From Parabacteroides distasonis ATCC 8503 (GTDB lineage Bacteria; Bacteroidota; Bacteroidia; Bacteroidales; Tannerellaceae), in the NCBI RefSeq assembly GCF_000012845.1, contig NC_009615.1, forward strand, positions 705,501 through 769,500: a DNA stretch of 64,000 bases, read 5' to 3'. Within the stretch, counting starts at the first letter, position 1. Every line of letters starts with the position of its first letter. A program made the translations under genes and the position numbers. The notes under the pieces are model-generated. The model searched no databases and was not told where the DNA came from. It saw only the letters and a program-made list of their open reading frames with translations. This document shows positions 11,878 through 47,153 of the stretch, piece by piece.

Positions 11878-11980
11878 AACACTACCGTGTTCCCACCTGA
11901 ACACAGTAGTATTCATCAGCGAACACAATAGTATTCAATCCCGGACACAATAGTCTTTTTGCTTTGAATACTATTGTGTT
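11878..11980. repeat. 22-bp-pitch repeat array A
   Basis: Five copies of a 14-bp unit (AACACARTAGTATT) start at 11878, 11900, 11922, 11944 and 11967, so the pitch is 22, 22, 22 and 23 bp. The first and last copies are in the opposite orientation to the middle three. The last copy runs into TTTTTT and can pair with the third copy, so the array may also serve as a terminator between two convergent genes. Confidence 0.8.
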
Positions 11981-12000
11981 TTTTCGTAAGGACGGGCAGC

Positions 12001-13296
12001 CTATACGTATGTATATTTCCTCGGGTAATTGAATAAGATCGCCAATAAGGCGCCTGCTCCCAATAGATACGGGTAGTAAAGATATTGCATGATCTCGATA
12101 GGGGAGACATGCCCGAGTCCGGCGGCCATCAACATCTGGGCGCCGTAGGGGATGATTCCCTGTACGAAGCAAGAGAAGATATCCAATAGGCTGGCGCTGC
12201 GGCGGGGATCTATCTTGAACCGGTCCGCTATATCTTTGGCGATCGGGCCGGCCATGATGAGGGCGATCGTATTGTTGGCCGTGCAGAGGTTGGCGAAGCT
12301 CACCAAGGCCGCTATGCTCATCTCGGCCCCCTTGGAGGAATGGATGCGGGAGGTAAGCTTGCGGATGATCCAGTCGATACCCCCGTTATAACGGATCATC
12401 TCCAACATGCCTCCTGCCAGAAGCGTCACGATAATCAGCTCGCCCATATTCGTGATACCTAGTCCCATGGAGGCGTTCCAGCCCCAGATATCAAAGCTAC
12501 CGGTCCACAGACCTACGATACCGGACAGGACGATCCCGATAAATAGCACCAGCATGACATTGATCCCGCAAACGGCGGTTACCAATACCACCAGATAAGG
12601 GATCACCTTGACCCATTCGATCGGGGCGGGGGCGTAAGCGTTCTCCACGCCGCTTCCCACCAGCACGTATATCAATCCGGTCAGGATCGCTATCGGGAGG
12701 GCGATACGGATATTCACCTTGAACTTATCGGACATCTGGCAACCCTGCGTGCGGGTAGCTACGATAGTCGTATCGGATATGAACGACAGGTTATCGCCGA
12801 ACATGGCGCCGCTCACCACGACACCCAGCATAAGGGCGTCCGGCATCCCCGTCTTGTCCGCTATACCGACGGCTACCGGGGCCAAGGCCACGATCGTGCC
12901 CACCGACGTACCTACCGAGATGGATATGAAGCAAGCGGCTAGGAAGATTCCGGCCGCCAACAGGTTACCGGGCAGGATGGACATCGCCAGATTCACGGTA
13001 GCGTCTACGGCACCCATCGCCTTGGCGGTCTGCGCGAAGGCCCCGGCGAGGATGAAGATCAATACCATCAGCATGATATTACTGTTGGCCGCCCCCCGGC
13101 AGAACTGCTCGATACGGTTGCTTAATTTGCCTCCCTTGGAGATCGCTATCGCTACGATCGAGGAGATGACGAAGGCTACCGTTATCGGCATCTTATAGAA
13201 ATCTCCCGCCACGATAGATACCACCAAATAAGTCAATAAGAATACCACCAGCGGCGTCAATGCCCATGCGTTCGGTCTACGTCCCAACTCCCCCAT
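12001..13296 (-). CDS. NhaC-type Na+/H+ antiporter
   Basis: A polytopic inner membrane protein of 431 residues with about 10-12 hydrophobic segments. It belongs to the NhaC/ion transporter superfamily: the ISVGTSVGTIVALAPV segment (about 125-140) and FGDNLSFISDTT (about 165-176) are typical of Na+/H+ antiporters of this group. It probably exchanges sodium or an organic substrate for protons; some family members exchange malate/lactate or lysine. The gene follows the DUF5686 gene on the minus strand with a 56-base gap and may be co-transcribed with it. The stop codon lies just beyond repeat array A. Confidence 0.85.
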   Translation of the reverse strand: MGELGRRPNAWALTPLVVFLLTYLVVSIVAGDFYKMPITVAFVISSIVAIAISKGGKLSNRIEQFCRGAANSNIMLMVLIFILAGAFAQTAKAMGAVDATVNLAMSILPGNLLAAGIFLAACFISISVGTSVGTIVALAPVAVGIADKTGMPDALMLGVVVSGAMFGDNLSFISDTTIVATRTQGCQMSDKFKVNIRIALPIAILTGLIYVLVGSGVENAYAPAPIEWVKVIPYLVVLVTAVCGINVMLVLFIGIVLSGIVGLWTGSFDIWGWNASMGLGITNMGELIIVTLLAGGMLEMIRYNGGIDWIIRKLTSRIHSSKGAEMSIAALVSFANLCTANNTIALIMAGPIAKDIADRFKIDPRRSASLLDIFSCFVQGIIPYGAQMLMAAGLGHVSPIEIMQYLYYPYLLGAGALLAILFNYPRKYTYV

Positions 13297-13352
13297 TTTT
13301 TCTTATCTCTCTTAAATTAACTGTCAACTGTCAATTCTCTACGTCCCTTCTC

Positions 13353-15941
13353 TTAGAAGGAGAACCGCAGCGCTATACGCACGCCCCCCTTCTTGATATT
13401 CGGTTGGTCCAGATACGTCAACCGGCGGTAATAATCGATCCGTAATATCTTGAAGATGTTCTCCAGACCTACGCTGGCCTCCAGGTAAGGCGTACGGCCC
13501 ATCGGCGAGGTTCCCTCGGGGAAACGGTATAGTCCCGTCGGGTCCAAGGCAGGGTTGTTCTTATCGGTCAGTCCTCCGTAGAAACCGCTGAACGATATCA
13601 CCTCACGCAAACGTAGCCACTTCACGCCGGGAATACGGTTTAAGATCCATCCCTTCATATAATACGTGAAGTAGAACGAAACATACTGGTCGCTTACGAA
13701 CTCCAGCGCACGCATCATGTTGAAGGCTTGCGGCTGGATCGTGATGGACTGGTTGGTATTCGGCATGATGAGCAAGGGGAAAGGAACCTTGTCCCATACC
13801 TTGCCCGCCGTCACCAAGGCGTCGATATGTCCGAAGGAAGAGAGCCAGATCCGTTTCTCGGCGCTGATCTCCGTATGGTTGTAGTTGAAGTCGCCCCCCA
13901 ACACGTTCTTCAATCCCATTTGATGGGATAGCTTGAATACGGGAGCGTCTTTCGAGAGGTTGAAAAGCGAGTTCTTACCCTCTCGTCCGTTATAGGCACG
14001 CTCGCCCGGGGCAAAACGAAGCTGGGCCCCTAGCTCCGTGTTGGTGAAACTCTTTAGGTTCGTCAATGTCCCGTCGGCGTTGTAACGGTCGTAGCGGAGC
14101 GTTCCGGCCGCCTCGTTGTTCTCGTTCCGCGCCCAAGTGGTAAGGGTCAGGCCATTCAGCCATTCCTTCTGGTACTGGAGCATGGTCTTGCGGATGTATT
14201 GCATCATGGTGACGGGCTCGCCCACCTTCCATGCCACGAACATATTATCCTTGCTGGTGAAGAGGAAGTCCTGACCGGGCGTATATACGTCGTACTCTTG
14301 GATCGCGGAGATGTTGTTCACCGGGCTTTCTCCCTCGTGATATTTCTTCTTGTTCACGCTATACGTCAGCTTGGCGTTATACTTTAGCTTACGGTCGTTT
14401 ACGCCATAGGCCAGATAACCGCTACCGAACCAGTGCGGGTTGAGGTTTGCCGTCGTCATACCTCCCACACGCATGCGGAAGCCCTCCAGATGGTTGGCGC
14501 TGAACGTGGTATTCATCGGTCCGAAATCGAACTTGCTCTTATCCTTGTCCGCCGTGGTCGGGATATAACCGGTGATCAATATCTCGGCGGTCTTGATGAT
14601 CACGTTGAAAGCCGGTACCTTGCGAAGTTGCGCCAGCAAGTCGTCCAAGGCGCTCTCTTTCTCTTTCAAGGGGACATGGCGGTTGTGTATCCAGAAGGTG
14701 TCGGTCTGGGCGGTGGCTTCGGGCAACTCATGGATCGGGCCGAGAAGACCGAAGATCGAGTCGGCGTTCTGCACGTCGAACTGATACTTATCGAAATTCC
14801 TTAGCTGGTGGGCATAGAGCTGTTGCGCCCCTTTTACGATATAGAAATTAACGTAGGTATTCTCGTTGGCGAGCACCCAAGTGCTATCCGGCATCCGCTT
14901 GAACTCTTGCTCGATCCGAAGCTTGTCCACCCAGTTGAGGTTGATGTTCGCCGGGGTGTTCAAGAGGAATTTCTTGACGGCGTAATTACCGTCCAGCGTG
15001 ATGTACAAGCGGCCCGTGAAGCCGTAGCTCTGGCTGTTTACGGGCACGAAGGCGAGATCCACACATTTATCTCCGGCTACGTCCACCGTATCCATGATAT
15101 AATATTTGTAATAGGAGACGGCCAGCGTGGAAGATAACGGGCTCACGAAACGGTTCAACAAGATATTGATATTGTTGTCGAAGATATTGACGCCCTTGAA
15201 TATCTCCTCAAGGTTGGCGGTGATGGCGCCTCCATCGTCCAATGTCTTGTCGATACCCTGCTGGCGCTTGGCCTTGGTGATCGTCTTCTCCGCCTTGGGA
15301 TGTTTGCGGTAGTATTGGTCGGAGATCGTCTCACGGACGGAGATCGTCAGGATCGGTTTCCCGTTGAACTCCGAGGTATCCAGATAGTTCTTGATGAACT
15401 TGAATTTCTTCAGGAACTTATTCTTCTCGAGATTGGGGTTGAAGTCGTCCAGCGACATGCTGAGCTTCTCGTACACCTCGCTTTGGTACTCGTCCTTCGC
15501 CTCGATGCGGTTGTCGTTCTTATGCTCTATGACTTTCTTGATCAGTTCCACGGCGGGGTTGTCCTTGCGGGAGTATCTCTCCTTGGTAGGCCTCACCTCT
15601 ACCTCCGCGATCTGGAAGGAGGTGGGGCTTAATAATATATCCAGATTGTCGTTCTTTTGCCCGGCCTTTAGGTTTACGACCTTATTGTCATATCCAAGCG
15701 AGGATACGACCAGCCGGGTAAGCCCTTTGTCATTCTGGAGGCTGAAAGCCCCGTCATCGTCGGTCATCGCCCCGATCGTCGAGTTCTCGAACATGACGGA
15801 TACGTAGGATAGGGGTTCCCCGCTTACGGAGTCTCTCACGATTCCGGACGCGGAAGTTATGCTCTGGGCGTATAGGACGGAAATGCCGGTCACGAATTGT
15901 AACAGGACTAGCAAAGTGATATAGCGAATAGATCTTATCAT
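13353..15941 (-). CDS. DUF5686 family outer membrane protein with carboxypeptidase-like domain
   Basis: An 862-residue secreted protein: signal peptide (about 1-25, VLYA-QS), carboxypeptidase regulatory-like domain (about 28-110) and a long DUF5686 region that probably forms an outer membrane barrel, ending with aromatic residues (ALRFSF). Proteins of this type are widespread in Bacteroidetes and lack a known function. They resemble TonB-dependent receptors at the N-terminus but have no plug domain. The ATG at 15941 gives a normal signal peptide. A TACCTTTG box lies about 40 bases upstream on the minus strand. Confidence 0.88.
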   Translation of the reverse strand: MIRSIRYITLLVLLQFVTGISVLYAQSITSASGIVRDSVSGEPLSYVSVMFENSTIGAMTDDDGAFSLQNDKGLTRLVVSSLGYDNKVVNLKAGQKNDNLDILLSPTSFQIAEVEVRPTKERYSRKDNPAVELIKKVIEHKNDNRIEAKDEYQSEVYEKLSMSLDDFNPNLEKNKFLKKFKFIKNYLDTSEFNGKPILTISVRETISDQYYRKHPKAEKTITKAKRQQGIDKTLDDGGAITANLEEIFKGVNIFDNNINILLNRFVSPLSSTLAVSYYKYYIMDTVDVAGDKCVDLAFVPVNSQSYGFTGRLYITLDGNYAVKKFLLNTPANINLNWVDKLRIEQEFKRMPDSTWVLANENTYVNFYIVKGAQQLYAHQLRNFDKYQFDVQNADSIFGLLGPIHELPEATAQTDTFWIHNRHVPLKEKESALDDLLAQLRKVPAFNVIIKTAEILITGYIPTTADKDKSKFDFGPMNTTFSANHLEGFRMRVGGMTTANLNPHWFGSGYLAYGVNDRKLKYNAKLTYSVNKKKYHEGESPVNNISAIQEYDVYTPGQDFLFTSKDNMFVAWKVGEPVTMMQYIRKTMLQYQKEWLNGLTLTTWARNENNEAAGTLRYDRYNADGTLTNLKSFTNTELGAQLRFAPGERAYNGREGKNSLFNLSKDAPVFKLSHQMGLKNVLGGDFNYNHTEISAEKRIWLSSFGHIDALVTAGKVWDKVPFPLLIMPNTNQSITIQPQAFNMMRALEFVSDQYVSFYFTYYMKGWILNRIPGVKWLRLREVISFSGFYGGLTDKNNPALDPTGLYRFPEGTSPMGRTPYLEASVGLENIFKILRIDYYRRLTYLDQPNIKKGGVRIALRFSF

Positions 15942-15980
15942 GTAAATGTCTCGTTATTCCTTCACGGATAATACAGTTGG

Positions 15981-15988
15981 CAAAGGTA
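15981..15988 (-). promoter_or_regulatory. -7 box for the DUF5686/antiporter unit
   Basis: Read on the minus strand, TACCTTTG lies 40 bases before the start codon at 15941. Confidence 0.5.
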
Positions 15989-16040
15989 TGTTTTTTTCGT
16001 GGGAGGGAGGGGGGAGAGGCTATTAATAATCATTAATCAA

Positions 16041-16074
16041 TGGGGCATCCCCTCCTTGGAGGGAGGGGAGCCCC
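16041..16074 (-). terminator. Strong GC-rich hairpin between DUF6261 and DUF5686 genes
   Basis: TGGGGC/GCCCCA with an inner CCCCTCC/GGAGGG stem forms a long hairpin 40 bases beyond the DUF6261 stop codon. No long T run follows, so it may be a processing or rho-assisted end. Confidence 0.55.
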
Positions 16075-16113
16075 ATCATTCTTAAATCTAAAAAACATGA
16101 GGGCCTCACGGCT

Positions 16114-16923
16114 TTATATCTCTGACGGCGATTCGCTATCCGCTTGCTTCTTGGCGGCGGCGGCCCTCGCTTGTGCGATGCGTTGGTTGTAGAGGGCGTT
16201 GGTCTCGTCGATGAGGGTGTTGAGGCGGTTGATGAAGGTGGCGGTCGTAGCCGTTGGCTTCACCACGCTCTGGGCGAAGGCGTAGGTGGTCATCTCGTCG
16301 TATTCCTCGTCCATGCGGAGGCGGATCTTCTTGGCGCTCTCGATGGGGTTGTCGGCTTGCGCGTTGGTGCGCTGCTCGGTCAAGGCTGCGTATTGCTGGT
16401 TCTTCTCCTTCAGCGAGGCCACTACCTCGGTGAGGGTGAGCGCCGCCAGCGCCTCGGGCATGCCGTCCTTGTCGAGGTCTACCAGCAAGCCCTCGATGGC
16501 GGCCGTCTCCTGCAAGTTGGCGAGGCGCGCGGCTCCGATGTAGGGCTTCACGGGAAGGTATAGCTTCTCGGCCGCCGTGCGTTGCGCCGCCAGCGGGCTT
16601 TTCGTCATTTGGGTAATGGTGGAAGTAATGAAGATCAAGAGATCATCCCTCTCCTTGTCGAGGGTGGACATCTGCGCGGTCTCCTCGCTGGCCGAGGATT
16701 GGTTCACGGCGTCGGTCAATAGGGCGAAATCGGCGGCGAAGGCTGTACGAACTTCTTGGGGGATGCCCAGCGGGTCGTTCGGATCGAAGCTGATCTCGTC
16801 GGGCGATTCCGAGTCGCTTCCGCCACCCGCGAGCAGGTTCCCGTAGCGGGCCATGAAGGTTCGGTACTCGGCGTTGTTCAATTTCGTGATGTTAATGTCT
16901 TTTACTTTTGTAATCTTTTCCAT
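16114..16923 (-). CDS. DUF6261 family protein
   Basis: A 269-residue, alanine- and threonine-rich helical protein without signal peptide, matching my recollection of the DUF6261 family found in Parabacteroides and Bacteroides. Its start, INITKLNNAEYRTFM, and its coiled-coil-like helices (for example ASLKEKNQQYAALTEQ) are typical. The function is unknown. GC content and the Ala/Glu-rich composition are noticeably higher than in the flanking genes. A 41/42-bp tandem repeat lies directly upstream of its start, which could affect its expression. Confidence 0.7.
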   Translation of the reverse strand: MEKITKVKDINITKLNNAEYRTFMARYGNLLAGGGSDSESPDEISFDPNDPLGIPQEVRTAFAADFALLTDAVNQSSASEETAQMSTLDKERDDLLIFITSTITQMTKSPLAAQRTAAEKLYLPVKPYIGAARLANLQETAAIEGLLVDLDKDGMPEALAALTLTEVVASLKEKNQQYAALTEQRTNAQADNPIESAKKIRLRMDEEYDEMTTYAFAQSVVKPTATTATFINRLNTLIDETNALYNQRIAQARAAAAKKQADSESPSEI

Positions 16924-17025
16924 TTTCTTGTTGATTTAGATCCATGATCAGGTTTAATACTGGCTAAAGGTAAGACAAATCGGTGGATATAGCTCTGGAA
17001 ACTACCGTATTTTTCGCGGATTCGA

Positions 17026-17231
17026 CCTCGCGGCAGGTGAAAAGTTGAATCTTGGGAAAATACGGGGCTTACATCGGGCGCGAAACGGAATCTTGGGGAA
17101 ATGCGAGACCTCGCGGCGGGTGCGCGGTCGAATCTTGGAAAAATACGGGGGGTACATCGGGTGTGCGGTCGAATCTTGGGGAAATGCGGCATTCCGCGGC
17201 AAGTGCGAGGTCGAATCTTTAGAAAATGCGA
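17026..17231. repeat. 41/42-bp tandem repeat, five copies
   Basis: The landmark GAATCTT recurs at 17047, 17088, 17130, 17171 and 17213, giving pitches of 41, 42, 41 and 42 bases. Copies alternate between two half-types, one containing CTCGCGGC and the other TACATCGGG, so the true period is 83 bp with a fifth partial copy. The stretch 16924-17265 holds this repeat and no gene that I trust, although it is open in more than one minus-strand frame. Confidence 0.85.
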
Positions 17232-17265
17232 GGCCCAACCGTGATGGCCGGGCCTCGGCGGATCG

Positions 17266-17691
17266 TTATTTCCGTTTGAACTCTCGGAGGTCTCCGTTAT
17301 CATGGAAGCAAATCCTGTTCAGAGGGGAGATCCATGCCTCCACGGAGGGGCTGCCGGAGTCGGGTGTCAATCGCAGGGTAGGGTGCTCGTACTCGTAGCG
17401 TCCGTGCGTGAGGATGATAGTATCCCGCATGATTTGCGATTCGTCATCATGCACACTGCCTTTAGTCGTCATCGTGAAGCCGTCGTCCTCGAAACGCAGC
17501 GTTTGCTCTTTGGGGTTCCGGATGGGAGAGAATCCCTCGTTGGAGACATAAGTCACGGGATACATTTCTACTTTGAGCCATTCCGAGCCTGCCAACTCCT
17601 GTTTGTCGCCATATTTCCATGTGTTGTCATCCTTGGTGCAGGCTATGAGGATGAAGGAGAAGATTGAAGCGAGTATGATTGTTTTTCTCAT
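17266..17691 (-). CDS. Small lipoprotein of unknown function next to a C10 protease
   Basis: A 141-residue protein with a lipoprotein signal (FILIA-C, Cys18), probably exposed in the periplasm or on the surface. The body is beta-rich with WLKVEMYPV and ISPLNRICFHDNG segments and has no domain I recognise. It lies 15 bases downstream of the C10 cysteine protease gene on the same strand and is surely co-transcribed with it. In other Bacteroidetes and streptococci, C10 proteases are paired with small inhibitor proteins, so an inhibitor role is a reasonable but unproven guess. Confidence 0.75.
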   Translation of the reverse strand: MRKTIILASIFSFILIACTKDDNTWKYGDKQELAGSEWLKVEMYPVTYVSNEGFSPIRNPKEQTLRFEDDGFTMTTKGSVHDDESQIMRDTIILTHGRYEYEHPTLRLTPDSGSPSVEAWISPLNRICFHDNGDLREFKRK

Positions 17692-17706
17692 GAGTATCTT
17701 ATATGT

Positions 17707-18837
17707 TTATAGTTTATGTATATTGCAAATCATCTTTAGATTTTTGTTAAATAAATATCCTCCGGCATTGAAAGACATTGGGTATTCTATTAAGAAGAAT
17801 CCGTTCGAATCGCCTCCCCAACCCCAATTCATTTTTAAGTAATCATAGCAATTTCCGTCATCATATATATGTTTTTTCCATCCATCGCAAACCCATGTGT
17901 GGCCTGCATTTGATGCCGTATATCCGAAAAGAATCGCCGGTCTTCCATTTTGAAGGTTCATTTTACATTCTTCAACGGAAAGTGTTACGATACCATCTGC
18001 TTTAAGCCCATAAGAAATTAGACAGGATGGTATATTGCTTGGAGATGCTCCACTTTCGAGACATTCATACTCTGTGCTGATTTTACTTCCTATGTTTGCT
18101 ATAAGTGTGCTCACTTGATCTATGACAGTTGCGCTAGAAGAAGATGTTACCGTAGAGCTAGCTAAGATAGCATTCCAATTAAGGTTTGTTGGGACTCTGT
18201 GATAAGCGAGGATCTGGGCGATAGCAATGGCATTACATCCAGCAAGCGCATGGTCATAACACTTTATTGGACATTTTTCATTATAGGGATATCCTTGACT
18301 CCAAAGTGTAGGTAGGTCTTTATAGCAAGCTTCCACACTCATCTTTGTTTGAATGGCCTTTTCTTGTGTCTCTGCGTAATATTGATTCAGATCTTGCTGA
18401 ATGAGCATCGGGATATCTCTATAATACAATCGCAAAGGTTCGATGAACGATGTGTCCGATAAAAGACCGGAAGGTACTGAAATGAGCACTTTCTCTACTC
18501 TTTTATCTCCGACTACCACGGAGTAGCCCTCTTGTCCATCCGTCTCGGTAGTGAACTCATAAACGGGTATCGTATCTCTGACTGTAACGGGCAAGGTCTC
18601 TGTGTTATCAATATACAGAGTCTTTAATTTATGCTCTTTGATCGTGAAAGACGTGTTAGACTTCGTGAAAGCATCGGCCACGAACTCTTGCAATAAACTT
18701 TTGGCTTCATCGATATCCAACGTGGTGGTTTCTATCGATCCCTGTTCGTCTACATCTGAAAATTCTATATCTTCGCTCGTGCAGGAGGATATCAAACATG
18801 TTGATAACAGTAATTGTGCTAAAAATTTAGTTTTCAT
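17707..18837 (-). CDS. C10 family (streptopain-like) cysteine protease, lipoprotein
   Basis: A 376-residue secreted papain-fold protease of MEROPS family C10, which includes streptopain SpeB and the Bacteroides fragilis Bfp proteases. A lipobox LISS-C (Cys19) anchors it. A propeptide of the Spi/SpeB-pro type covers about residues 30-165. The catalytic Cys201 sits in AGCNAIAIAQILAYH, His313 in AGHTWVCDGW, and the NWGWGG motif is at 337-342. All key residues are present. Residues after the first cysteine are acidic, as in surface lipoproteins. It probably degrades host or diet proteins. The small lipoprotein gene 15 bases downstream may encode its inhibitor. Confidence 0.9.
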   Translation of the reverse strand: MKTKFLAQLLLSTCLISSCTSEDIEFSDVDEQGSIETTTLDIDEAKSLLQEFVADAFTKSNTSFTIKEHKLKTLYIDNTETLPVTVRDTIPVYEFTTETDGQEGYSVVVGDKRVEKVLISVPSGLLSDTSFIEPLRLYYRDIPMLIQQDLNQYYAETQEKAIQTKMSVEACYKDLPTLWSQGYPYNEKCPIKCYDHALAGCNAIAIAQILAYHRVPTNLNWNAILASSTVTSSSSATVIDQVSTLIANIGSKISTEYECLESGASPSNIPSCLISYGLKADGIVTLSVEECKMNLQNGRPAILFGYTASNAGHTWVCDGWKKHIYDDGNCYDYLKMNWGWGGDSNGFFLIEYPMSFNAGGYLFNKNLKMICNIHKL

Positions 18838-18996: not shown

Positions 18997-19061
18997 AACT
19001 TTGTTTTTTACATAAATATCTTTGTGTTGTTCTCGTTCTGCGGCTCTCTTGAAACAACAAA

Positions 19062-24648: not shown

Positions 24649-24746
24649 GGGGATTTTGGGGGAAATGCTTTTGGGTCCTCTGAAAAAGGGAGACTTATCT
24701 TATATTTTTATGTATGTTCTAGTTCCTTGCCGTATGATTCTGTAAA

Positions 24747-24826
24747 AAGTCGTACGTGTTTCCCGAAAAACATGTACGACTTTTCAAAAAAACACGTACG
24801 TGTTTTTCGAAAATGATAATCGTCTT
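24747..24826. repeat. 22-bp-pitch repeat array B
   Basis: 14-bp units start at 24747 (AAGTCGTACGTGTT), 24769 (inverted, AACATGTACGACTT) and 24791 (AACACGTACGTGTT, fully palindromic), each exactly 22 bp apart. A degenerate fourth copy fits at 24813. The unit differs from those of the other arrays. Confidence 0.75.
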
Positions 24827-24930
24827 TTTAAAATGTTAGTATCCAATTATTTATGTATTCATGTCATTTGCATACTTATTGTATGGAATAGTTTAATAAA
24901 TCTCCTCTATCTTGATATAAAAATTATCTG

Positions 24931-25008: not shown

Positions 25009-25497
25009 ATGAAAACATTAGATTATATCCATTTAGACGCATCAGCGGTAAGTAACGTAGTAGCAAGCTTGAAACAATTATTGGCGGACTACCAAGTATT
25101 TTATACGAACCTTCGTGGTTTCCACTGGAATATCAAGGGACACGGTTTCTTCGTTCTTCACGGTAAATTCGAGGATATGTACAACAACGCTGCCGAGAAG
25201 GTTGACGAGTTGGCGGAACGTATCCTGATGTTGGGAGGCGAGCCGGAGAACAAGTTCAGCGAGTATTTGAAAGTAGCCCGTGTAAAAGAGGTATCAGGCG
25301 TATCCTGCGGTGACGAGGCGTTAAAGAATATTCTTGATACGTATGGTCATTTGATCGGTGAGGAGCGTAAACTTCTTTCCTTGGCATCCGGGGCGGGAGA
25401 TGAGGCTACGGTCGCTTTGATGAGTGATTATCTGAAAGAACAAGAGAAGTTGGTTTGGATGTTAGTAGCATATTTAACTTGCGATTGCAAGAAGTAA
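25009..25497 (+). CDS. dps: Dps-family ferritin-like protein, copy 1
   Basis: A 162-residue four-helix-bundle protein of the Dps group. Dodecamers of such proteins oxidise and store iron with peroxide and protect DNA during oxidative stress. The ferroxidase-site residues lie in FHWNIKGHGFFVLHGKFEDMY with EKVDELAERI following (about residues 41-73). It has a C-terminal CDCKK tail. A second copy 1.46 kb downstream differs at about six residues. The gene has its own promoter and terminator. Confidence 0.93.
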   Translation: MKTLDYIHLDASAVSNVVASLKQLLADYQVFYTNLRGFHWNIKGHGFFVLHGKFEDMYNNAAEKVDELAERILMLGGEPENKFSEYLKVARVKEVSGVSCGDEALKNILDTYGHLIGEERKLLSLASGAGDEATVALMSDYLKEQEKLVWMLVAYLTCDCKK

Positions 25498-33357: not shown

Positions 33358-34116
33358 ATGAGAAAAGGTTTGAACATGAAAATGGCGGCTATGGGATTGG
33401 TGTTGGTATCTATGGTCGCATGTACGGGAAAGACAACGACAGACGCTACTTGTTGCGCCGCTAACGGGGAGGGCAATTGTCCGGAAGGAACTTGCCGCAA
33501 AGAATGCACGAACGCATGTAATACTAACAATCAAAAAAATAAAACAATGGCTTATTCAAAGAAGTACACGAACGCCGATTTTTATAAAGACGGCAAGTTT
33601 CAACAAGATGTCGCTATGGAAGCGATGAAAGATATGTTTGCTTTCTACGATGTTCCTTTCACGGAGTTGATGGCGAAAGATATGTGGGTGACAGACTTTG
33701 GCTTGGGCGATTTCGAAAATGTAGGTATGGGTGGTATTTTCTGGATCAACGATCCGGAGTATAAGTATTTCGCTCACGCTATCTATTTGTTGCCGGGCCA
33801 GATGATTCCGGAACACGCTCACGTAAAGACTGACTTTCCTGCTAAACATGAGTCTTGGATGGTAGAGAAGGGTTGGGTATACAACTTCTCTGAGGTAGGT
33901 GACGAGACCCCGAACGCCCCGGCTATCCCTGCTGGACACGGACCGATCAAGAGCAAGAATTTCGTGGTTCAGAAGGTCGGCGACGTATTACGTCTGAAGA
34001 AATTGGAGACATTCCACTTTATGATGGCAGGTCCGGAAGGCGCTATCGTAGATGAGTGGGCATGCTATCACGACAACGCTGGCTTACGTTTCACGAACCA
34101 GAAGGCCGCTTTATAA
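33358..34116 (+). CDS. Cupin-domain lipoprotein with a cysteine-rich linker
   Basis: From the first ATG the product is 252 residues with a lipobox (VSMVA-C, Cys22) and a linker carrying eight more cysteines (about residues 32-53). The cupin fold follows, with candidate metal ligands His158 and His160 in PEHAHVKT and further His/Glu in KHESW and TFHFMM. It resembles sugar-isomerase-like cupins (D-lyxose isomerase group), without proof of activity. An internal ATG at 33547 would give a cytosolic cupin of 189 residues. An A-rich leader precedes it, so both forms are possible. A 22-bp-pitch array begins directly at its stop codon. Confidence 0.7.
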   Translation: MRKGLNMKMAAMGLVLVSMVACTGKTTTDATCCAANGEGNCPEGTCRKECTNACNTNNQKNKTMAYSKKYTNADFYKDGKFQQDVAMEAMKDMFAFYDVPFTELMAKDMWVTDFGLGDFENVGMGGIFWINDPEYKYFAHAIYLLPGQMIPEHAHVKTDFPAKHESWMVEKGWVYNFSEVGDETPNAPAIPAGHGPIKSKNFVVQKVGDVLRLKKLETFHFMMAGPEGAIVDEWACYHDNAGLRFTNQKAAL

Positions 34117-34117: not shown

Positions 34118-34174
34118 AACCTCTAGGGTTATGCTTCGTAATTCTAAGGGTTGCCGATCGTGATCCTTAGGGTT
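34118..34174. repeat. 22-bp-pitch repeat array D
   Basis: Three direct copies of a 13-bp unit start at 34118 (AACCTCTAGGGTT), 34140 (AATTCTAAGGGTT) and 34162 (GATCCTTAGGGTT), exactly 22 bp apart, between two co-directional genes of the IclR-headed cluster. Confidence 0.7.
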
Positions 34175-34208
34175 TCAATAAACAACCTTCTAAATTTAAA
34201 TTTAATAC

Positions 34209-40777: not shown

Positions 40778-40795
40778 CTATAAATTGAATAGATC

Positions 40796-41110
40796 ATGAG
40801 AACATTTAATCACGTAGGAATTGTCACTACGGAAAGTAAAGAAGGGGCGGTTTATAACGAAAGCCTGAGTGTATGGTTGACGGATTACAGCAAGAGTCCG
40901 AACCGGATCGAGTTCTTGAAATTCGAGAAAGGCAGCTGCCTACCGGAGTTGGTACAGACCAATGGCCATATCGCTTATACGGTTCCTTGTTTGGAAAAAG
41001 AGTTGGAAGGTAAGAAGGTAATCTTCGGCCCAGCTGTTTGCGACGAGCACTTGACGATCGCTTTCATCGAGGAAGAAGGTATCGCTATCGAGATCATGGA
41101 ACTAAAATAA
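40796..41110 (+). CDS. Small VOC-fold (glyoxalase-like) protein
   Basis: A 104-residue protein with a single VOC module: FNHVGIVTTE at the start, LVQTNGHIAYTVPCLEKEL in the middle and IAFIEEEGIAIEIMELK at the end. His5, His56 and the C-terminal Glu residues could bind a metal. The family includes glyoxalases, epimerases and lyases. Its place directly before dhaK and two genes before an LsrF-type thiolase suggests that it rearranges the phosphorylated or free ketose, in the way LsrG isomerises phospho-AI-2. That is an inference from position. Confidence 0.7.
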   Translation: MRTFNHVGIVTTESKEGAVYNESLSVWLTDYSKSPNRIEFLKFEKGSCLPELVQTNGHIAYTVPCLEKELEGKKVIFGPAVCDEHLTIAFIEEEGIAIEIMELK

Positions 41111-41135
41111 TTCGTAAATCAAAATTTATAAATCT

Positions 41136-41143
41136 AAAGGAGG
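41136..41143 (+). promoter_or_regulatory. Strong Shine-Dalgarno sequence before dhaK
   Basis: AAAGGAGG lies 8 bases before the ATG at 41152. This is an ideal ribosome-binding site, rare in this window, where most genes have none. It settles the start of dhaK at 41152 rather than in the longer open frame from 41038. Confidence 0.75.
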
Positions 41144-41151
41144 ATAATACC

Positions 41152-42168
41152 ATGTCAGACATCAAGACAAAATTCATAAATGATCCTGAGAATATTACGG
41201 CAGAGTTATTGGAAGGCTATGTATTAGCATATCCGAATCAGGTAAAGTTGGCAGCTGAGAATATCGTCGTACGTGCTAACCCGAAAGGCAATGATAAGGT
41301 TGCGATCGTTACCTTAGGTGGTTCCGGTCATGAGCCTGCCTTGAGTGGTTTCGTAGGAGAGGGCATGTTGGATTGCTCCGTCGTGGGTGACGTATTCGCC
41401 GCTCCGGGTGCCCAACGTTTGTTTCAGGCACTGCAATTGATGGATCGTGAGGCCGGGATCTTGTTGGTCGTATTGAACCATTCCGGCGACGTGATGAGTG
41501 CTAATATGGCTTGCCAGTTGGCTGCACGTAAAGGGATCAAGGTGAAGAAATTACTTACGCATGATGATATCAGCGCAGGTATCGGGGCGAATATAGACGA
41601 TCGTCGTGGCTTGGCTGGTTGTGTTCCTTTGTATAAGATATTAGGTGCCGCCGCTGAGGAAGGGAAGTCTTTAGACGAGCTGATTGAGATTGGTGAACGC
41701 TATAATAAGAACGTGGCTACCTTGGCTGTCGCTATGCGTTCTTGTACGCATCCCCAAAACGGAGGTACGATCACGAACCTTCCCGATGGTATCATGGAGA
41801 TCGGTATGGGCCAACATGGCGAAGGTGGCGGTGGACAGAAACCGTTGGTATCCGCCGATGATACGGCAGTGGAGATGGTAGACCTACTTTGCCAGCAGTT
41901 ACAGCCAAAAGCCGGTGATAAGATGTTGTTGATCATTAACGGCGTAGGCGCTACTACCCATATGGAATTGAATATCATCTTCCGCAAGGCTTATAAGGAA
42001 TTAGAGGCTCGTGGCTTGCAGGTGGTGGTAAGCCGTATCCAAGAGATCTTGACCGTACAGGAGCAAGCCGGATTCCAGATGATTATGGCGATCTTGGATG
42101 AGGATCATATCGATTATTTGAATAACAAATGTGCGGACGCACCTTATTGGACAACCCTAGGTAAATAA
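41152..42168 (+). CDS. dhaK: Dihydroxyacetone kinase, DhaK subunit
   Basis: The 338-residue protein is the substrate-binding subunit of a dihydroxyacetone-type kinase. The GGSGHEPA loop (57-63) and the active-site His222 in GMGQHGEGGGG are present. In typical DhaK the second motif reads GIHGEPG and the first GHEPAHAG; here the Pro and one His are replaced, which suggests a different ketose such as erythrulose or an AI-2-like compound. The phosphate donor is unclear, since no DhaM or PTS gene is nearby. DhaL is encoded 9 bases downstream. Start fixed by the ribosome-binding site at 41136. Confidence 0.9.
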   Translation: MSDIKTKFINDPENITAELLEGYVLAYPNQVKLAAENIVVRANPKGNDKVAIVTLGGSGHEPALSGFVGEGMLDCSVVGDVFAAPGAQRLFQALQLMDREAGILLVVLNHSGDVMSANMACQLAARKGIKVKKLLTHDDISAGIGANIDDRRGLAGCVPLYKILGAAAEEGKSLDELIEIGERYNKNVATLAVAMRSCTHPQNGGTITNLPDGIMEIGMGQHGEGGGGQKPLVSADDTAVEMVDLLCQQLQPKAGDKMLLIINGVGATTHMELNIIFRKAYKELEARGLQVVVSRIQEILTVQEQAGFQMIMAILDEDHIDYLNNKCADAPYWTTLGK

Positions 42169-42177
42169 ATAATATAC

Positions 42178-42792
42178 ATGAAACAACTTACTATCGAGGC
42201 CTTCAAGGCCATGTTAGACAATGCGCTGAAACAGATCAAGGCACGTGAGGAGGAATTCTCTAAATTGGATGCCGTAATCGGGGATGGTGATCATGGTACC
42301 GCTATCGTTGCCGCTATGACTGCCGTGAATAAAAGCGCTCAGTCCGGAACGGAGTTCAAGCAAATGCTTGGTGATATGGGAATGGACGTGATGATGGAAG
42401 TGAGCGGATCGACAAGTACCTTGCTCGGTGCTTTCTTCTTGGGTATGAGCGATCATGCAGAGGGAACCGAGTTGGATGCCGCAGGCGTGAAAGCTATGTT
42501 CGCCGGTGGCTTGGCGAATGTGCAACAACAAACCCAAGCGAAACGAGGCGACAAGACGATGATGGATGCCTTGATCCCGGCGGTGGAGGCTATGCAGGCT
42601 TGTACGTCGGATGATATCAAGGAGGTCTTGAATGCCGGCGCTAAAGCGGCGCTTGATGGAGCGGAGGCTACGGTACCGATGAAAGCTAACTTTGGACGTG
42701 CCCGTAACTATGGTGAGCGTTCGATTGGTTTCGCTGATAGCGGGGCTACTTCGTGGAGCTGTATGTTCGCTTCTTTTGCAGAGGTGCTATAA
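42178..42792 (+). CDS. dhaL: Dihydroxyacetone kinase, DhaL (nucleotide-binding) subunit
   Basis: A 204-residue helical barrel subunit with the metal-nucleotide motif DAVIGDGDHGTAI (about 31-43), whose aspartates hold two Mg ions, and GSTSTLLGAFF (about 80-90) for the phosphates. In PTS-type systems DhaL keeps ADP as a cofactor; in ATP-type enzymes it exchanges ATP. With no PTS component in the window, direct ATP use or an unlinked donor is likely. It is paired with dhaK and followed by the LsrF-like gene. Confidence 0.9.
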   Translation: MKQLTIEAFKAMLDNALKQIKAREEEFSKLDAVIGDGDHGTAIVAAMTAVNKSAQSGTEFKQMLGDMGMDVMMEVSGSTSTLLGAFFLGMSDHAEGTELDAAGVKAMFAGGLANVQQQTQAKRGDKTMMDALIPAVEAMQACTSDDIKEVLNAGAKAALDGAEATVPMKANFGRARNYGERSIGFADSGATSWSCMFASFAEVL

Positions 42793-42807
42793 AATAATAC
42801 ACAGCGT

Positions 42808-42834
42808 GAGACGGGGCATGCCCCGTCTCTACAA
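42808..42834. repeat. REP-like palindromic element, copy 2
   Basis: A perfect 22-bp palindrome GAGACGGGGCA/TGCCCCGTCTC followed by TACAA, between dhaL and the lsrF-like gene. It is related to the element at 19098. Confidence 0.7.
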
Positions 42835-42861
42835 AATATAATAATATAACGAATAATAAAT

Positions 42862-43734
42862 ATGGCAGATTTAGATGATTTAAGAGAAGGTGCGGACTTC
42901 GGTTTAGGCATCAATTGTGAGAACCAGAGTTTCCATGTGAAGGGAGCCGAGAACTTACCTTGGGGCATGAAAGACCGTCTGTCCCGTATCTTCAACCCGA
43001 AGACAGGCAAGGCGGTTATGCTTGCTTTTGACCATGGTTTCATCATGGGGCCGACTTCCGGTTTGGAGCGTATCGACTTGAATATCGTTCCTTTGATTGA
43101 ATATGCGGATTGCTTGATGTGTACCCGTGGTATCCTGCAATCTACGATCCCTGCGAATACGACGAAACCGATTTGTCTTCGTTCGGACGCTGGAACGTCT
43201 ATTCTTACGGATTTGAACGATAATGTATTGATCGATATAGAGGACGCTATCCGTATGAACGTCTCCGCCATGGCGGTTATGTTGGCTATCGGTGATGAGG
43301 CGCATGAGGCTAAGACTGTGGCTAACTTATATAAGGCGGTCGATAAGGCCAGCCGTTACAATATCCCGGTAATGGGTGTTACCGCCGTTGGTAAGCAAAT
43401 GGCTCGAGACGCTCGTTATTTCGGTCTGGCTTCCCGTATCTGTGCGGAGAATGGCGCTAATATCGTGAAGACCTACTATTGTGAGGGCTTCGAGAAGGTA
43501 GCCGCTGCTTGTCCGGTTCCCGTGGTAATTGCCGGTGGTAAGAAATTACCGGAGAAGGAGGCGTTGGAATTATGTTATAATGCGATCAACGACGGTGCGG
43601 CTGGCGTGGATATGGGACGTAACGTATTCCAGAGTACTTCTCCTGTCGCCATGATCCAAGCGGTTCATGCGGTCGTGCATCAAGGTATCACGCCTGATCA
43701 GGGATATGAGTTGTTCTGCGACTTAGCGAAATAA
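42862..43734 (+). CDS. lsrF: LsrF-type 3-hydroxy-5-phosphonooxypentane-2,4-dione thiolase
   Basis: A 290-residue class I aldolase-fold enzyme, strongly similar along its whole length to E. coli LsrF: MADLDDLREG, LSRIFNPKTGKAVMLAFDHG, GPTSGLERID, MCTRGIL and GVDMGRN are all shared. LsrF transfers an acetyl group from phospho-AI-2 breakdown product to CoA, giving DHAP and acetyl-CoA. The Schiff-base Lys203 (IVKTYY) is retained at the same residue number. No lsrK, lsrR or Lsr transporter is present; DhaKL could replace LsrK. Related enzymes might act on other phospho-ketoses. Confidence 0.85.
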   Translation: MADLDDLREGADFGLGINCENQSFHVKGAENLPWGMKDRLSRIFNPKTGKAVMLAFDHGFIMGPTSGLERIDLNIVPLIEYADCLMCTRGILQSTIPANTTKPICLRSDAGTSILTDLNDNVLIDIEDAIRMNVSAMAVMLAIGDEAHEAKTVANLYKAVDKASRYNIPVMGVTAVGKQMARDARYFGLASRICAENGANIVKTYYCEGFEKVAAACPVPVVIAGGKKLPEKEALELCYNAINDGAAGVDMGRNVFQSTSPVAMIQAVHAVVHQGITPDQGYELFCDLAK

Positions 43735-43740
43735 TCCATC

Positions 43741-43767
43741 GCAGGGGTAGGTTTTACCTGCTCCTGC
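43741..43767 (+). terminator. Hairpin after the lsrF-like gene
   Basis: GCAGGGGTAGG and CCTGCTCCTGC pair at 9 of 11 positions around five bases. There is no T run, so it may only attenuate transcription into the next gene. Confidence 0.4.
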
Positions 43768-43787
43768 TTATTTATATAATTTAAACC

Positions 43788-44672
43788 ATGAAAATCTATA
43801 CTTTTATATTATCCGCATGCCTGCTACTCGTATGTTCCGCATGTCATGAGGCGTCGCATTATCTTTTATTAGGCGGTTCCGGCTGGGACAAAATCGCCAT
43901 CGTAAACAAGAACACGAAAGAAATTGAATGGGAGCATCCCTTGGAAAAAGGATGGGAATGTAATTCCGTAGCTGTTACTCCCGACCGGAATATCCTTTTT
44001 TCCTATTCGAAAGGGGCGAAGCTAATCACCCGGGATCATGAGGAGGTCTGGAATATCTCCGCTCCGGAAGGCTGTGAGATGCAGACGGCCCGTGTACTTC
44101 CCAACGGTAATTATTTATTAGCGTGGTGTGGATACCCGGCGACGATCATGGAGGTGAATGCAAAAGGAGAGATCCTGTCGAAAACGGATTTCGACACCCA
44201 TATTGAGCAACCCCATGCCCAATTCCGTCAAGTAAACAAAAATAAGCAGGGCAATTATTTAGTGCCCTTGTTCGCTACCTCCGAGATCCGGGAAATATCC
44301 CCGTCCGGTCAATTGCTGAAAAGCGTGAAAGTAGACGGTAACCCGTTTAGCGTGGCTGCGTTGGATAACGGTAATTATCTGGTCGCTTGCGGTGATGCCC
44401 ATTGCTTCATAGAGCTGAATTTCGAGACTGGAGATATCGTTCGCAAGGTGAATGAGAACGATATCGAGGGAGCCCAGCTTTTCTTTGTTGCCCAGTTGCT
44501 CCCTAAACGGGACGGTGGTTTGTATATCTGTAACTGGCAAGGCCATGACGGAGAGGCTGCGAAAGGACATTACCCGCAGTTGATCGAGATAAACGGAGCC
44601 GGAAAGATGGTCTGGGATTTGAATGATAACGCTACCTTCGGGATGATCTCCTCTATTTGTCCGATCGATTAA
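43788..44672 (+). CDS. Beta-propeller lipoprotein (PQQ-like repeats)
   Basis: A 294-residue protein with a lipoprotein signal (LLVCSA-C, Cys19) and about six blade-like repeats of the PQQ/six-bladed propeller type, visible as recurring NGNYLxxxxGxxxxIxEx segments. It has no CxxCH motif and no PQQ-ligand signature that I can see. It is probably anchored in the periplasm and could bind the cluster's substrate or the cytochromes. It is the last gene of the run before a promoter and the transporter gene. Confidence 0.75.
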   Translation: MKIYTFILSACLLLVCSACHEASHYLLLGGSGWDKIAIVNKNTKEIEWEHPLEKGWECNSVAVTPDRNILFSYSKGAKLITRDHEEVWNISAPEGCEMQTARVLPNGNYLLAWCGYPATIMEVNAKGEILSKTDFDTHIEQPHAQFRQVNKNKQGNYLVPLFATSEIREISPSGQLLKSVKVDGNPFSVAALDNGNYLVACGDAHCFIELNFETGDIVRKVNENDIEGAQLFFVAQLLPKRDGGLYICNWQGHDGEAAKGHYPQLIEINGAGKMVWDLNDNATFGMISSICPID

Positions 44673-44693
44673 AGATATATCCGGATTATTAAT

Positions 44694-44701
44694 TATATTT
44701 G
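44694..44701 (+). promoter_or_regulatory. -7 box before the MFS transporter gene
   Basis: TATATTTG lies 23 bases before the ATG at 44725 and suggests that the MFS and GH130 genes form their own transcript. Confidence 0.5.
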
Positions 44702-44724
44702 TACACCTAAATTCTAAATAAAGC

Positions 44725-46041
44725 ATGGAAGAGAAAAACACGAATGCTACTAAACGTCGAAACCCTGTAACTTGGGTCCCTAGTGTCTATTTTGCTATGG
44801 GATTGCCTTTTGTAGTGCTGAACATGGTTACCGTACTCATGTTTAAGGGATTGGATATCTCGGATGCCCAGATTGCGTTATGGACCTCGGTTATCATGTT
44901 ACCTTGGACCTTAAAGCCTTTATGGAGCCCGTTTTTGGAAATGTATCGTACCAAGAAATTCTTTGTCGTATTGACCCAGTTGTTATCCGGTTGCTTATTC
45001 GGTTTAGTGGCCTTGGCGTTAAACTTGCCGAGTTTCTTTGCTCTATCTATCGCATTATTAGGTATTATAGCGCTTAGCGGGGCTACGCATGACGTGGCAA
45101 CGGATGGCGTTTATATGAAAGAGCTCTCACCGGAGAATCAAGCCAAATATATCGGTTGGCAAGGTGCGTTTTACAATTTAGCGAAGATCGTAGCCACGGG
45201 TGGTCTGGTTTATCTGGCGGGTTATATGATGCAATATTTTACCGGGATAGGATTGGAGAAAGAGGCCATGATATACGCTTGGATGATCGTTATGCTGCTT
45301 TGCGGTACGATCATGATCCTGCTTGGTTTTTATCATATGAAGATGTTGCCTTCGGGTGGAAAAGCCGCTACCGGAGAACATTCGTTGAAGGAAAGTATGG
45401 CTGAGCTATGGCTGGTCTTCAAGGAGTTCTTCACGAAGAAGTATATCGTGTGGTATATCTGTTTCATTATATTGTATCGTTTTGCCGAGGGTTTCGTGAT
45501 AAAGATCGTACCTTTGTTCTTGAAAGCTCCGATAGCTGATCAAGGATTAGGACTAACGGAGCAAGAGATCGGTTTGTATTATGGTACGTTTGGAGCGGCG
45601 GCGTTTGTGCTGGGTTCTTTGCTCGGTGGATATTATATCTCGGCTAAGGGATTGCGAAAGGTATTGTTTACGCTTTGTTGTTGCTTCAACATACCGTTTT
45701 TGGTATACACGTTCTTGGCGTGTTTCCAGCCTGATAATGGTCTCATTATCGCTTCCGCCATCGTATTCGAGTATTTTGGCTATGGATTCGGTTTCGTGGG
45801 CTTGATGCTGTTTATGATGCAACAGGTAGCTCCGGGCAAGCATCAGATGGCGCATTATGCGTTCGCCTCAGGTATCATGAACCTTGGCGTAATGCTTCCG
45901 GGAATGATGAGCGGTTTTGTGAGTGACTGGCTAGGTTATAAGTATTTCTTTATCGTGACCTTGCTGGCGATGATCCCTTCATTCTTGGTAGCCTATTTCG
46001 TACCGTTCACGTATGACGATAAAGGTAATAAGTTAGTATAG
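44725..46041 (+). CDS. MFS transporter of the AmpG/PAT type
   Basis: A 438-residue inner membrane protein with about 12 helices. The start ([23 protein letters not shown]), the [10 protein letters not shown] segment and [19 protein letters not shown] match the AmpG-like peptide/acetyl-CoA/drug MFS family, whose members import muropeptides or small sugar conjugates. The GH130 gene 22 bases downstream indicates that it imports a mannose-containing disaccharide or a related glycoside. Its own promoter separates it from the DhaKL cluster, though the shared strand allows joint expression. Confidence 0.85.
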
Positions 46042-46063
46042 TAATATTTTAATAGGATTAGTT

Positions 46064-47062
46064 ATGGATAATTTGAAAATCGTAGGCGCTCCGCTGCCAG
46101 ATATGCCTTGGGAAGATCGTCCCGAGGGTAGCAAAGAAGTATTGTGGAGATATTCGAAGAACCCGGTGATTCCTCGTGATATCCTCCCGACATCGAACAG
46201 TGTGTTCAACAGTGCTGTTGTCCCTTTCAAAGGTGGTTATGCCGGTGTGTTCCGATGCGACGATACGAATCGCCGGATGCGTTTGCACGTAGGTTTTAGC
46301 GCAGATGCCATTCATTGGAGTATCTCTGAGACAAAACTCGAGTTTGAGTGCGACGACAAGGAGATCGGCGAGTTTGTTTATGCCTACGACCCCCGTGTAT
46401 GTTTTATCGAGGATCGTTACTATGTGACTTGGTGTAACGGTTATCATGGCCCGACGATCGGCGTGGCTTACACGTTCGATTTCGAGACCTTCCATCAGCT
46501 GGAGAACGCTTATCTGCCTTTCAACCGTAATGGCGTGATGTTCCCTCGTAAGATTAACGGAAACTTCGCCATGTTGAGCCGTCCGAGCGACAACGGTCAT
46601 ACTCCGTTCGGCGATATTTTCTATAGCGAGTCTCCGGATATGTGTTTCTGGGGTAAACATCGCCACGTGATGTCTCCGGCTGCGTTCGAGGATAGCGCTT
46701 GGCAGTGTACGAAGATCGGTGCGGGCCCTATCCCTATCGAGACTTCCGAAGGCTGGTTATTGATTTACCACGGCGTGCTTCGTTCTTGCAACGGGTATGT
46801 GTATAGCTTCGGTTCCGCTATCTTGGATTTGGAGCAACCTTGGAAAGTGAAATTCCGCTCCGGACCTTATTTGTTATCCCCGCAAAAGGATTACGAGTGC
46901 ATGGGAGACGTTCCGAACGTAGTCTTTCCCTGTGCCGCCTTGCATGATCCGGAGACGAAACGTATCGCTATCTATTACGGCTGCGCAGATACGGTAACAG
47001 GATTGGCTTTTGGCTATATTGATGAGATTTTGGATTTTACGAAGAAGAATTCAATCATTTAA
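46064..47062 (+). CDS. GH130-family glycoside phosphorylase or hydrolase
   Basis: A 332-residue cytosolic five-bladed propeller enzyme of family GH130, which contains beta-mannoside phosphorylases and some beta-1,2-mannosidases. Family hallmarks are [20 protein letters not shown] (45-64), YDPRV with Asp109 as candidate proton donor, [19 protein letters not shown] and [18 protein letters not shown] phosphorylase would release mannose 1-phosphate. Subfamily and linkage cannot be told by eye. It is coupled to the MFS transporter gene and ends before repeat array C. Confidence 0.85.
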
Positions 47063-47074
47063 CAGACTCGAGAA

Positions 47075-47153
47075 GAACAATATACTTTTGTTGTCGAAAC
47101 AATATACTTTTACACACGAAAGTATATTGTTTTAGAACAAAAAGTATATTGTT
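47075..47153. repeat. 22-bp-pitch repeat array C
   Basis: Four cores start at 47077 and 47099 (ACAATATACT) and at 47121 and 47143 (the reverse complement, AGTATATTGT). The pitch is exactly 22 bp throughout, with an orientation switch in the middle. The last copy runs into a T tract, so pairing of the arms could also form a terminator between two genes on the same strand. Confidence 0.85.

What the first reader, a model, noticed from the sequence alone, without database searches (positions are those of the whole stretch)
11878..47153. A class of intergenic arrays with locus-specific 13-14 bp units at exactly 22-bp pitch
Four separate arrays (A 11878, B 24747, C 47077, D 34118) share one design: units of 13-14 bp, 8-9 bp spacers and a start-to-start distance of exactly 22 bp (one step of 23). 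The unit is conserved inside an array but unrelated between arrays, and orientation may flip within the array. A fixed two-helical-turn period with freely changing sequence suggests that the mechanism selects the spacing, for example a protein lattice, slippage at fixed step, or a template-directed copying process. I know of no described element with this pattern.
Basis: seen in the sequence. Interest (0 to 1): 0.85.

Follow-up and report, generated by a model that had tools for sequence, protein, structure and literature searches.

The report
Tandem palindrome rows at 22-bp pitch
Between the genes of a gut bacterium of the genus Parabacteroides lie many short rows of palindromic DNA words repeated every 21 to 23 bases, with different words in different rows, and the rows are likely docking strips for paired DNA-binding proteins, a genome feature for which our searches found no published description.

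Summary
In 1.664 Mb of the host genome (Parabacteroides), 77 of 604 intergenic gaps hold at least three units at 21-24-bp pitch; three dinucleotide shuffles give 0, 1 and 1, and pitch 27-30 gives 1. Of 182 steps, 117 are 22, 47 are 23, 12 are 21 and 6 are 24, so the pitch is not always 22; families mostly keep their own. The unit is a quasi-palindrome: two 6-bp arms round a variable 4-bp centre. "Unrelated between arrays" is wrong genome-wide: 48 of 77 arrays fall into 14 multi-locus families. Arrays are scarcer in divergent gaps, and two families hug stop codons. Rows change by units, are absent, or carry another family at orthologous gaps of near relatives. One family recurs patchily in other families of the order. 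No REP-transposase domain was found. Best reading: REP/BIME-like extragenic rows of dimer-binding sites, half-sites about every 11 bp, likely occupied side by side by proteins. No such protein was identified; selfish-repeat and hairpin readings are not excluded.

The parts
11877..11982 (.). Array A: four quasi-palindromic units (AACAC-NNNN-GTRTT type) at 22-bp steps, then one inverted unit; between convergent genes
   Evidence: present in G016 and G050, absent in G001 and G053
24744..24833 (.). Array B: AAACACGTACGTGTTT-type units at 22-bp steps, 176 bp before the ferritin-like gene start
   Evidence: the same word gives 65 pairs at 22-bp pitch in the genome against 0 in the reversed control
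34119..34175 (.). Array D: three AGGGTT-ended units at 22 bp, starting 3 bp after a stop codon; weakest of the four
   Evidence: orthologous gaps in G016, G050 and G001 hold changed versions, G053 none
47074..47157 (.). Array C: AACAATATACTTTT units, two direct and two inverted, 12 bp after a stop codon
   Evidence: two units fewer in G016, another family in G050; folds far below shuffles
10953..11849 (+). Gene left of array A, no Pfam match
12001..13296 (-). Gene right of array A, Na+/H+ antiporter family
25009..25497 (+). Gene after array B, ferritin-like domain
33358..34116 (+). Gene before array D, no Pfam match
46064..47062 (+). Gene before array C, glycoside hydrolase family 130

Best explanation
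Each array is a short tandem row of quasi-palindromic ~16-bp sites at a pitch of 21-23 bp, and the rows are likely docking strips on which dimers of DNA-binding proteins sit side by side. Shown: two 6-bp arms round a variable 4-bp centre, so that half-sites lie about every 11 bp in alternating orientation; families that recur at many loci and mostly keep their own pitch; two families (T, A) that hug stop codons and others (B, R) that do not; rows that differ between near species by whole units, by presence and by family. Inferred: each family answers to its own dimeric protein; rows grow and shrink by duplication and loss of units and spread as extragenic repeats; side-by-side dimers act as a roadblock or boundary, mostly at gene ends.
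For: Arm-centre-arm profile with complementarity 0.71-0.80 in the arms, 0.58-0.61 in the centre and 0.34-0.41 beyond +-9 (161 units of 48 even-centred arrays). Arms agree between units more than the outer spacer columns. Both-arm changes are not in excess (39 seen, 45.7 expected if arms vary independently), and G.T mismatches do not exceed A.C on the transcript strand (100 against 83, P 0.30): duplex half-sites rather than an RNA stem. Family-constant pitch. T arrays lie within 43 bp of a stop in 9 of 9 cases, B arrays in 3 of 11.
Against: No binding data and no cognate protein: 58 clear-dyad arrays were scanned over 8 kb on each side without finding a gene flanked by its own family, and the 40 flanking proteins scanned are mostly unrelated. 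Within-unit pairing slightly exceeds reassorted arms (0.745 against 0.724, P 0.0005; at positions variable on both sides 0.522 against 0.438, P 0.0045), which favours a stem or palindrome correction. Arrays A, B and C fold far below shuffles. Arms do not clearly evolve more slowly than spacers or flanks (26/345, 16/149, 34/308 differences). The catalogue was built on 12-mer similarity, which favours conserved cores. Dozens of families would need dozens of specificities.
Confidence: 0.4

Rival explanations
1. Selfish REP/BIME- or MITE-like repeats: the rows are non-autonomous mobile units spread by an unknown enzyme and tolerated mainly behind genes, without a host role.
For: Multi-locus families, scarcity in divergent gaps (8 of 134, against 20 of 103 convergent and 49 of 371 tandem), presence/absence and replacement between near species, one family expanded in distant genera, and two G241 loci that share some 30 bp of sequence in front of the row.
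Against: No Y1_Tnp match in the genome; in P. distasonis similarity between loci mostly stops at the array edge, so no common ends were seen (listing capped); no gene flanked by its own arrays. A fixed pitch over unrelated words is not expected of unrelated selfish repeats.
Confidence: 0.28
2. RNA or single-strand hairpins: the rows are transcribed 3'-end stem-loops (terminators or mRNA stabilisers), or DNA hairpins, and the stems are what is selected.
For: RNA folding z-scores of -8.4/-8.6 (A), -5.0/-4.2 (B), -9.6/-8.3 (C) and -3.4/-1.1 (D) on the two strands; T and A families at stop codons; slight excess of within-unit pairing; in array gaps 37 of 56 terminator-like hits lie inside the array zone.
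Against: Gene ends with arrays have terminator-like hairpins no more often than others (23 of 72 against 100 of 325), and T-runs of five or more at the array edge are as common as in controls (16% of 92 against 15% of 325); no G.T bias on the transcript strand; no excess of double changes; neighbours are direct more often than inverted. Direct repeats of palindromes fold well whatever their role.
Confidence: 0.15
3. Replication by-product: slippage duplicates a chance palindrome and template switching perfects it; the pitch reflects a hairpin or polymerase step and nothing selects it.
For: Whole-unit copy differences (two units less at locus C in G016, 44 bp less at 4596326 in G001); weak within-unit pairing excess; residual similarity of spacers (0.38-0.58).
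Against: The same words recur at many loci and one recurs in other families of the order; arms agree more than spacers; pitch is narrow genome-wide.
Confidence: 0.14
4. Chance repeats in AT-rich intergenic DNA.
For: Array D alone would be unremarkable (not in the catalogues).
Against: 77 of 604 gaps against 0, 1 and 1 in dinucleotide shuffles; B pattern 65 against 0 in the reversed control.
Confidence: 0.01

Closest known systems
REP / BIME elements (PMC2817692: passages; PMC3733652: passages)
   Same: Short palindromes, extragenic, clustered and regularly spaced, multi-locus, scarce between divergent genes (the last is recalled for REPs), proposed protein docking sites.
   Different: No Y1_Tnp found here; many short families share one 21-23-bp pitch; neighbours mostly direct, not alternating.
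BrickBuilt MITE of Porphyromonas gingivalis (PMC4596501: passages)
   Same: Same bacterial order; tandem 23-nt units in intergenic regions at 19 loci in one strain.
   Different: One word only, inside a MITE with terminal inverted repeats; not described as palindromic in the passages seen ('palindrom' occurs 0 times). Here many palindromic words and no common ends seen in the host genome.
CRISPR arrays (recalled; REP paper passage gives repeats of 24-48 bp)
   Same: Conserved, partly palindromic repeats with spacers of even length.
   Different: Units of ~16 bp that differ from one another, spacers of about 6-8 bp, many loci.
Iterons and operator rows of plasmid or partition systems (recalled, no call)
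   Same: Rows of binding sites at about two helical turns; side-by-side dimers.
   Different: Those are single loci with a known binding protein; here many loci and families and no protein known.
Intrinsic terminators
   Same: Several rows follow stop codons closely, and rows can fold.
   Different: No enrichment of T-runs or terminator-like hairpins.

Membership tests
REP/BIME | Short imperfect palindromic unit, extragenic | tested here: met
   Arm-centre-arm profile; mean best dyad score 0.63 against 0.44 in control gaps; lag peak in noncoding, not in coding DNA
REP/BIME | RAYT (Y1 transposase) in the genome | tested here: not met
   PF01797: 0 matches in the own genome; the control search rings in 5 of 14 genomes
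REP/BIME | Alternating orientation of neighbours | tested here: not met
   127 direct, 53 inverted, 23 tied of 203 neighbouring pairs
REP/BIME | Terminal GTAG or CGTC tag | not tested
   No call made
REP/BIME | A protein that binds the unit | not testable with these tools
   Needs bench work
BrickBuilt-type MITE | Terminal inverted repeats or common ends round the tandem units | tested here: inconclusive
CRISPR | Near-identical repeats with unique, longer spacers and cas genes | tested here: not met
   Unit-to-unit identity in arms 0.68-0.82, spacers about 6-8 bp; cas genes not searched for
Intrinsic terminator | Stem followed by a T-run | tested here: not met
   As a class not enriched; simple scans of A and C found none; C does end in a run of T
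Known structured RNA | Match to an Rfam family | tested here: not met
   0 matches in the window at gathering scores

The most novel reading that the evidence does not exclude
Some Bacteroidales genomes carry an undescribed class of extragenic element defined by a ruler, not by a sequence: one mechanism (a family of lattice-forming dimeric proteins, or an enzyme that copies units at a fixed 21-23-bp step) keeps palindromic units in step while the words turn over, so that different families occupy the same gene end in sister species.
Probability: 0.3. Interest if true: 0.85.

Novelty: new variant of a known kind. Interest (0 to 1): 0.64.

Why it matters
About one intergenic gap in eight of the sampled third of a common gut bacterium's genome carries one of these rows, and the searches made here found no description. 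If the rows are protein lattices, these chromosomes hold a large, fast-changing layer of boundary sites with many specificities, whose binding proteins are waiting to be found. If they are selfish, they are palindromic repeats that spread without the known REP transposase. Either way the narrow pitch gives a simple, testable handle.

Tried and rejected
RAYT-driven REPs: no Y1_Tnp match. Cognate gene flanked by its own arrays: of 58 clear-dyad arrays scanned over 8 kb on each side, 3 had a lone two-mismatch hit. Link of B arrays to AAA-PDDEXK_9 nuclease genes: a B array lies in front of 3 of the 5 copies with a complete AAA-ATPase_like domain; the fourth, near 1.563 Mb, has none in the sample, and for the fifth, near 2.966 Mb, the capped list shows none but does not exclude one; most B arrays lie elsewhere, so this is noted, not claimed. 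One PDDEXK_2 gene has a B array 142 bp in front: a single case. B as a promoter family: withdrawn when I rechecked; in its 8 tandem gaps it is closer to the upstream stop in 6, and its lack of convergent gaps (0 of 11) is not unusual against 103 of 608. Terminators. Rfam: none. Rate test: too few sites. A first exact two-unit B pattern matched nowhere, not even in the own genome, so it says nothing about relatives. Samples of 5-62 kb from five genomes of other families (GC 24-44%) showed no clear 22-bp peak. A viral-contig scan for the GAAAC family hit one stretch. Literature: ten searches; searches returned nothing, and no listed title or abstract start describes such arrays; only open-licence PMC text is held and lists were capped. 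RepRanger (PMC12306157: passages) has 'parabacteroides' 0 times; PMC5771137 (passages) mentions BrickBuilt as a MITE.

Full report
What was checked. The window is 705501-769500 of a single-contig genome of 4,811,379 bp. Its genus is Parabacteroides by named relatives of a window gene, the closest a P. distasonis strain with a 99% identical protein; the size equals that of P. distasonis ATCC 8503 as I recall it, from no call.

More than chance. In 1.264 Mb of the genome, direct-repeat pairs in noncoding DNA number 59 at lag 22, 17 at 21, 20 at 23 and 0-5 at most other lags, with harmonics at 44 (31) and 66 (10); coding DNA shows only its 3-base rhythm. For rows of three or more units, pitch 21, 22, 23 and 24 give 26, 41, 37 and 8 of 460 gaps, and every other pitch from 15 to 39 gives 0-2 (one-base steps are allowed, so neighbouring pitches share rows; single-base shuffles give 0-1). 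In 1.664 Mb, 77 of 604 gaps hold a row; three dinucleotide shuffles give 0, 1 and 1, and pitch 27-30 gives 1. Several stretches were chosen because they hold an A-unit hit, so one gap in eight may be high for the whole genome.

Anatomy. Of the 77 arrays, 58 have a clear dyad. In the 48 with an even centre (161 units), complementarity is 0.58-0.61 in the central four bases, 0.71-0.80 at +-3 to +-8, 0.55 at +-9 and 0.34-0.41 beyond; the ten odd-centred arrays (34 units) are less tidy. The mean best dyad score of the 77 arrays is 0.63 against 0.44 for the same procedure in other gaps. A 16-bp unit and a 6-bp spacer make the 22-bp pitch; half-sites then lie about every 11 bp in alternating orientation. 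Unit-to-unit identity is 0.68-0.82 in the arms, 0.54-0.67 at the centre and 0.38-0.58 in spacer columns (the outermost four 0.38-0.42). Because arrays were found by 12-mer similarity, this contrast is partly built in. Of 182 steps 117 are 22, 47 are 23, 12 are 21 and 6 are 24. Pitch goes with the family: the two clusters of the CTTACAAT-N4-ATTGTAAG (T) word have 23 at 20 of 20 steps, four loci of the AGACCACG (R) type have 21 at 8 of 8, and the clusters holding the A/GAAAC and B words have 22 at 39 of 42.

Families. At 13 of 14 matching bases between any two units, 77 arrays fall into 43 clusters: 14 with 2-10 loci (48 arrays) and 29 single. So 'unrelated between arrays' holds for the four arrays against each other, not for the genome: the A word recurs at 22-bp steps near 1.40, 1.44 and 1.50 Mb, and the B word gives 65 pairs at 22-bp pitch against 0 for the reversed pattern. 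Similarity between loci of a family mostly stops at the array edges; R arrays are an exception, reaching about 80 bp beyond (listing capped at 81 rows).

Places. Rows occur in 20 of 103 convergent, 49 of 371 tandem and 8 of 134 divergent gaps (convergent against divergent P 0.002, tandem against divergent P 0.025). In tandem gaps 34 of 49 lie closer to the upstream stop than to the next start (P 0.009). Families differ: T arrays lie within 43 bp of a stop in 9 of 9 cases and six of seven clear A arrays within 27 bp of one, but B arrays only in 3 of 11 (five of the 12 arrays listed there under A are cross-matched B arrays). B was seen in 0 of 11 convergent, 8 tandem and 3 divergent gaps, R in 0 of 6 convergent gaps; these numbers are too small to call them promoter elements. 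The 40 flanking proteins scanned are mostly unrelated housekeeping and metabolic genes.

Turnover between species. Five orthologous gaps were looked up in up to four relatives (G016, G050, G001, G053). A: same units in G016; in G050 kept apart from the first unit, some spacers and a few positions; absent in G001 and G053. C: two units fewer in G016; in G050, with flanks 93-94% identical, a five-unit array whose inner units are of the A type; G001 and G053 anchored on one side only. D: present with changes in G016, G050 and G001, absent in G053. 4592587: other units in G001, a quite different GC-rich array in G050; G016 and G053 not resolved. 4596326: five units in G016, three in G001 (44 bp less), an unrelated gap in G053, G050 on one side only. 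Two further Parabacteroides (L140, L141), about 91% alike, share a row of 42-bp period behind the same gene, made of two alternating palindromes (palindromes read by eye).

Beyond the genus. A two-unit GAAAC word at 22-bp pitch (one mismatch allowed) was counted in 247 genomes of the order: 58 have a match, most with 1-3, as in the reversed control. Clear excess: the own genome 67 (control 1), G041 of the same genus 39 (3), G225 of another family 83 (0), G096 of a third family 46 (14), its congener G201 7 (0). G124, congener of G225, has 0. G241, another genus of the host's family, has 13 but 173 for the control word; without mismatches that word, TTTGNNNNCAAA, gives 104 pairs against 4, so it has its own 22-bp family. 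A longer GAAAC pattern (up to three mismatches) gives 105 pairs in G225 against 0. In samples of five other Parabacteroides, rows of this step are visible by eye in four.

Mechanism. Duplex half-sites for dimers are favoured by the arm-centre-arm design, by arms agreeing across units and loci, by no excess of double changes (39 against 45.7 expected; 31 of the 39 are complementary, as shared second-choice bases would give too; units with many mismatches were left out) and by no G.T bias in tandem gaps (100 against 83, P 0.30; convergent 29 against 39, divergent 11 against 5). Against: no protein is known; within-unit pairing slightly exceeds reassortment (0.745 against 0.724, P 0.0005); A, B and C fold far below shuffles; the rate test is inconclusive (arms 26/345, spacers 16/149, flanks 34/308). 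Terminators: hairpin-plus-T features are found at 23 of 72 gene ends with arrays and 100 of 325 without, and edge T-runs are equal; yet in array gaps 37 of 56 such hits lie inside the array zone, so some rows may supply the terminator there. REP-type mobility: no Y1_Tnp, but dispersal, gene-end bias and turnover look like it, and an unknown mover is not excluded. Replication-born palindromes may be how units multiply, but they do not explain the recurrence of words.

Comparison with the known. It works most like BIMEs: clustered extragenic palindromes that may dock proteins. It is not filed as REP/BIME because two features tested, a RAYT and alternating orientation, were not met. BrickBuilt of P. 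gingivalis shares the order and the pitch class (23 nt) but is one word within a MITE (PMC4596501, passages). I call the rows a new variant of a known kind. Ten searches of the held library listed no description; that library lacks most subscription journals.

Noticed in passing
window 42807-42834: A ~28-bp GC-rich palindromic word (GAGACGGGGC...GCCCCGTCTC) with dozens of copies in G050, often as inverted pairs some 70 bp apart.
   Followed up: no
window 17024-17232: Tandem repeat of 42/83-bp period inside or near coding sequence.
   Followed up: no
own genome near 89.1, 252.7, 284.0, 3033.5 and 3058.6 kb: A longer dispersed noncoding repeat, up to about 320 bp at 71-87% identity, beside several arrays.
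   Followed up: no
own genome 849378/851876 and 2511895/2514395: AATTGAAAAGTGCACC words at 23-24-bp pitch about 2.5 kb apart in inverted orientation, looking like ends of an insertion sequence; such ends can enter a pitch scan.
   Followed up: no
own genome 3490206, 3816880, 3459807, 3058703: B-family arrays lie in front of three AAA-PDDEXK_9 genes and one PDDEXK_2 gene; two of the former also have a 23/24-bp row behind them.
   Followed up: partly
L252 and L254 (G241): Two loci share some 30 bp in front of a four-unit AAACTACCGGTAGTTT-type row, as if the row travelled with a leader.
   Followed up: partly
L249, L251, L253 (G096): CAAAGCCCGCCGCC-T-run words, in tandem in L249 and L251, beside TTTG...CAAA palindromes.
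   Followed up: no
L098 (G050), beside array A: About 0.6 kb of extra DNA between array A and the antiporter gene, with a further, different repeat on the other side of the array.
   Followed up: no
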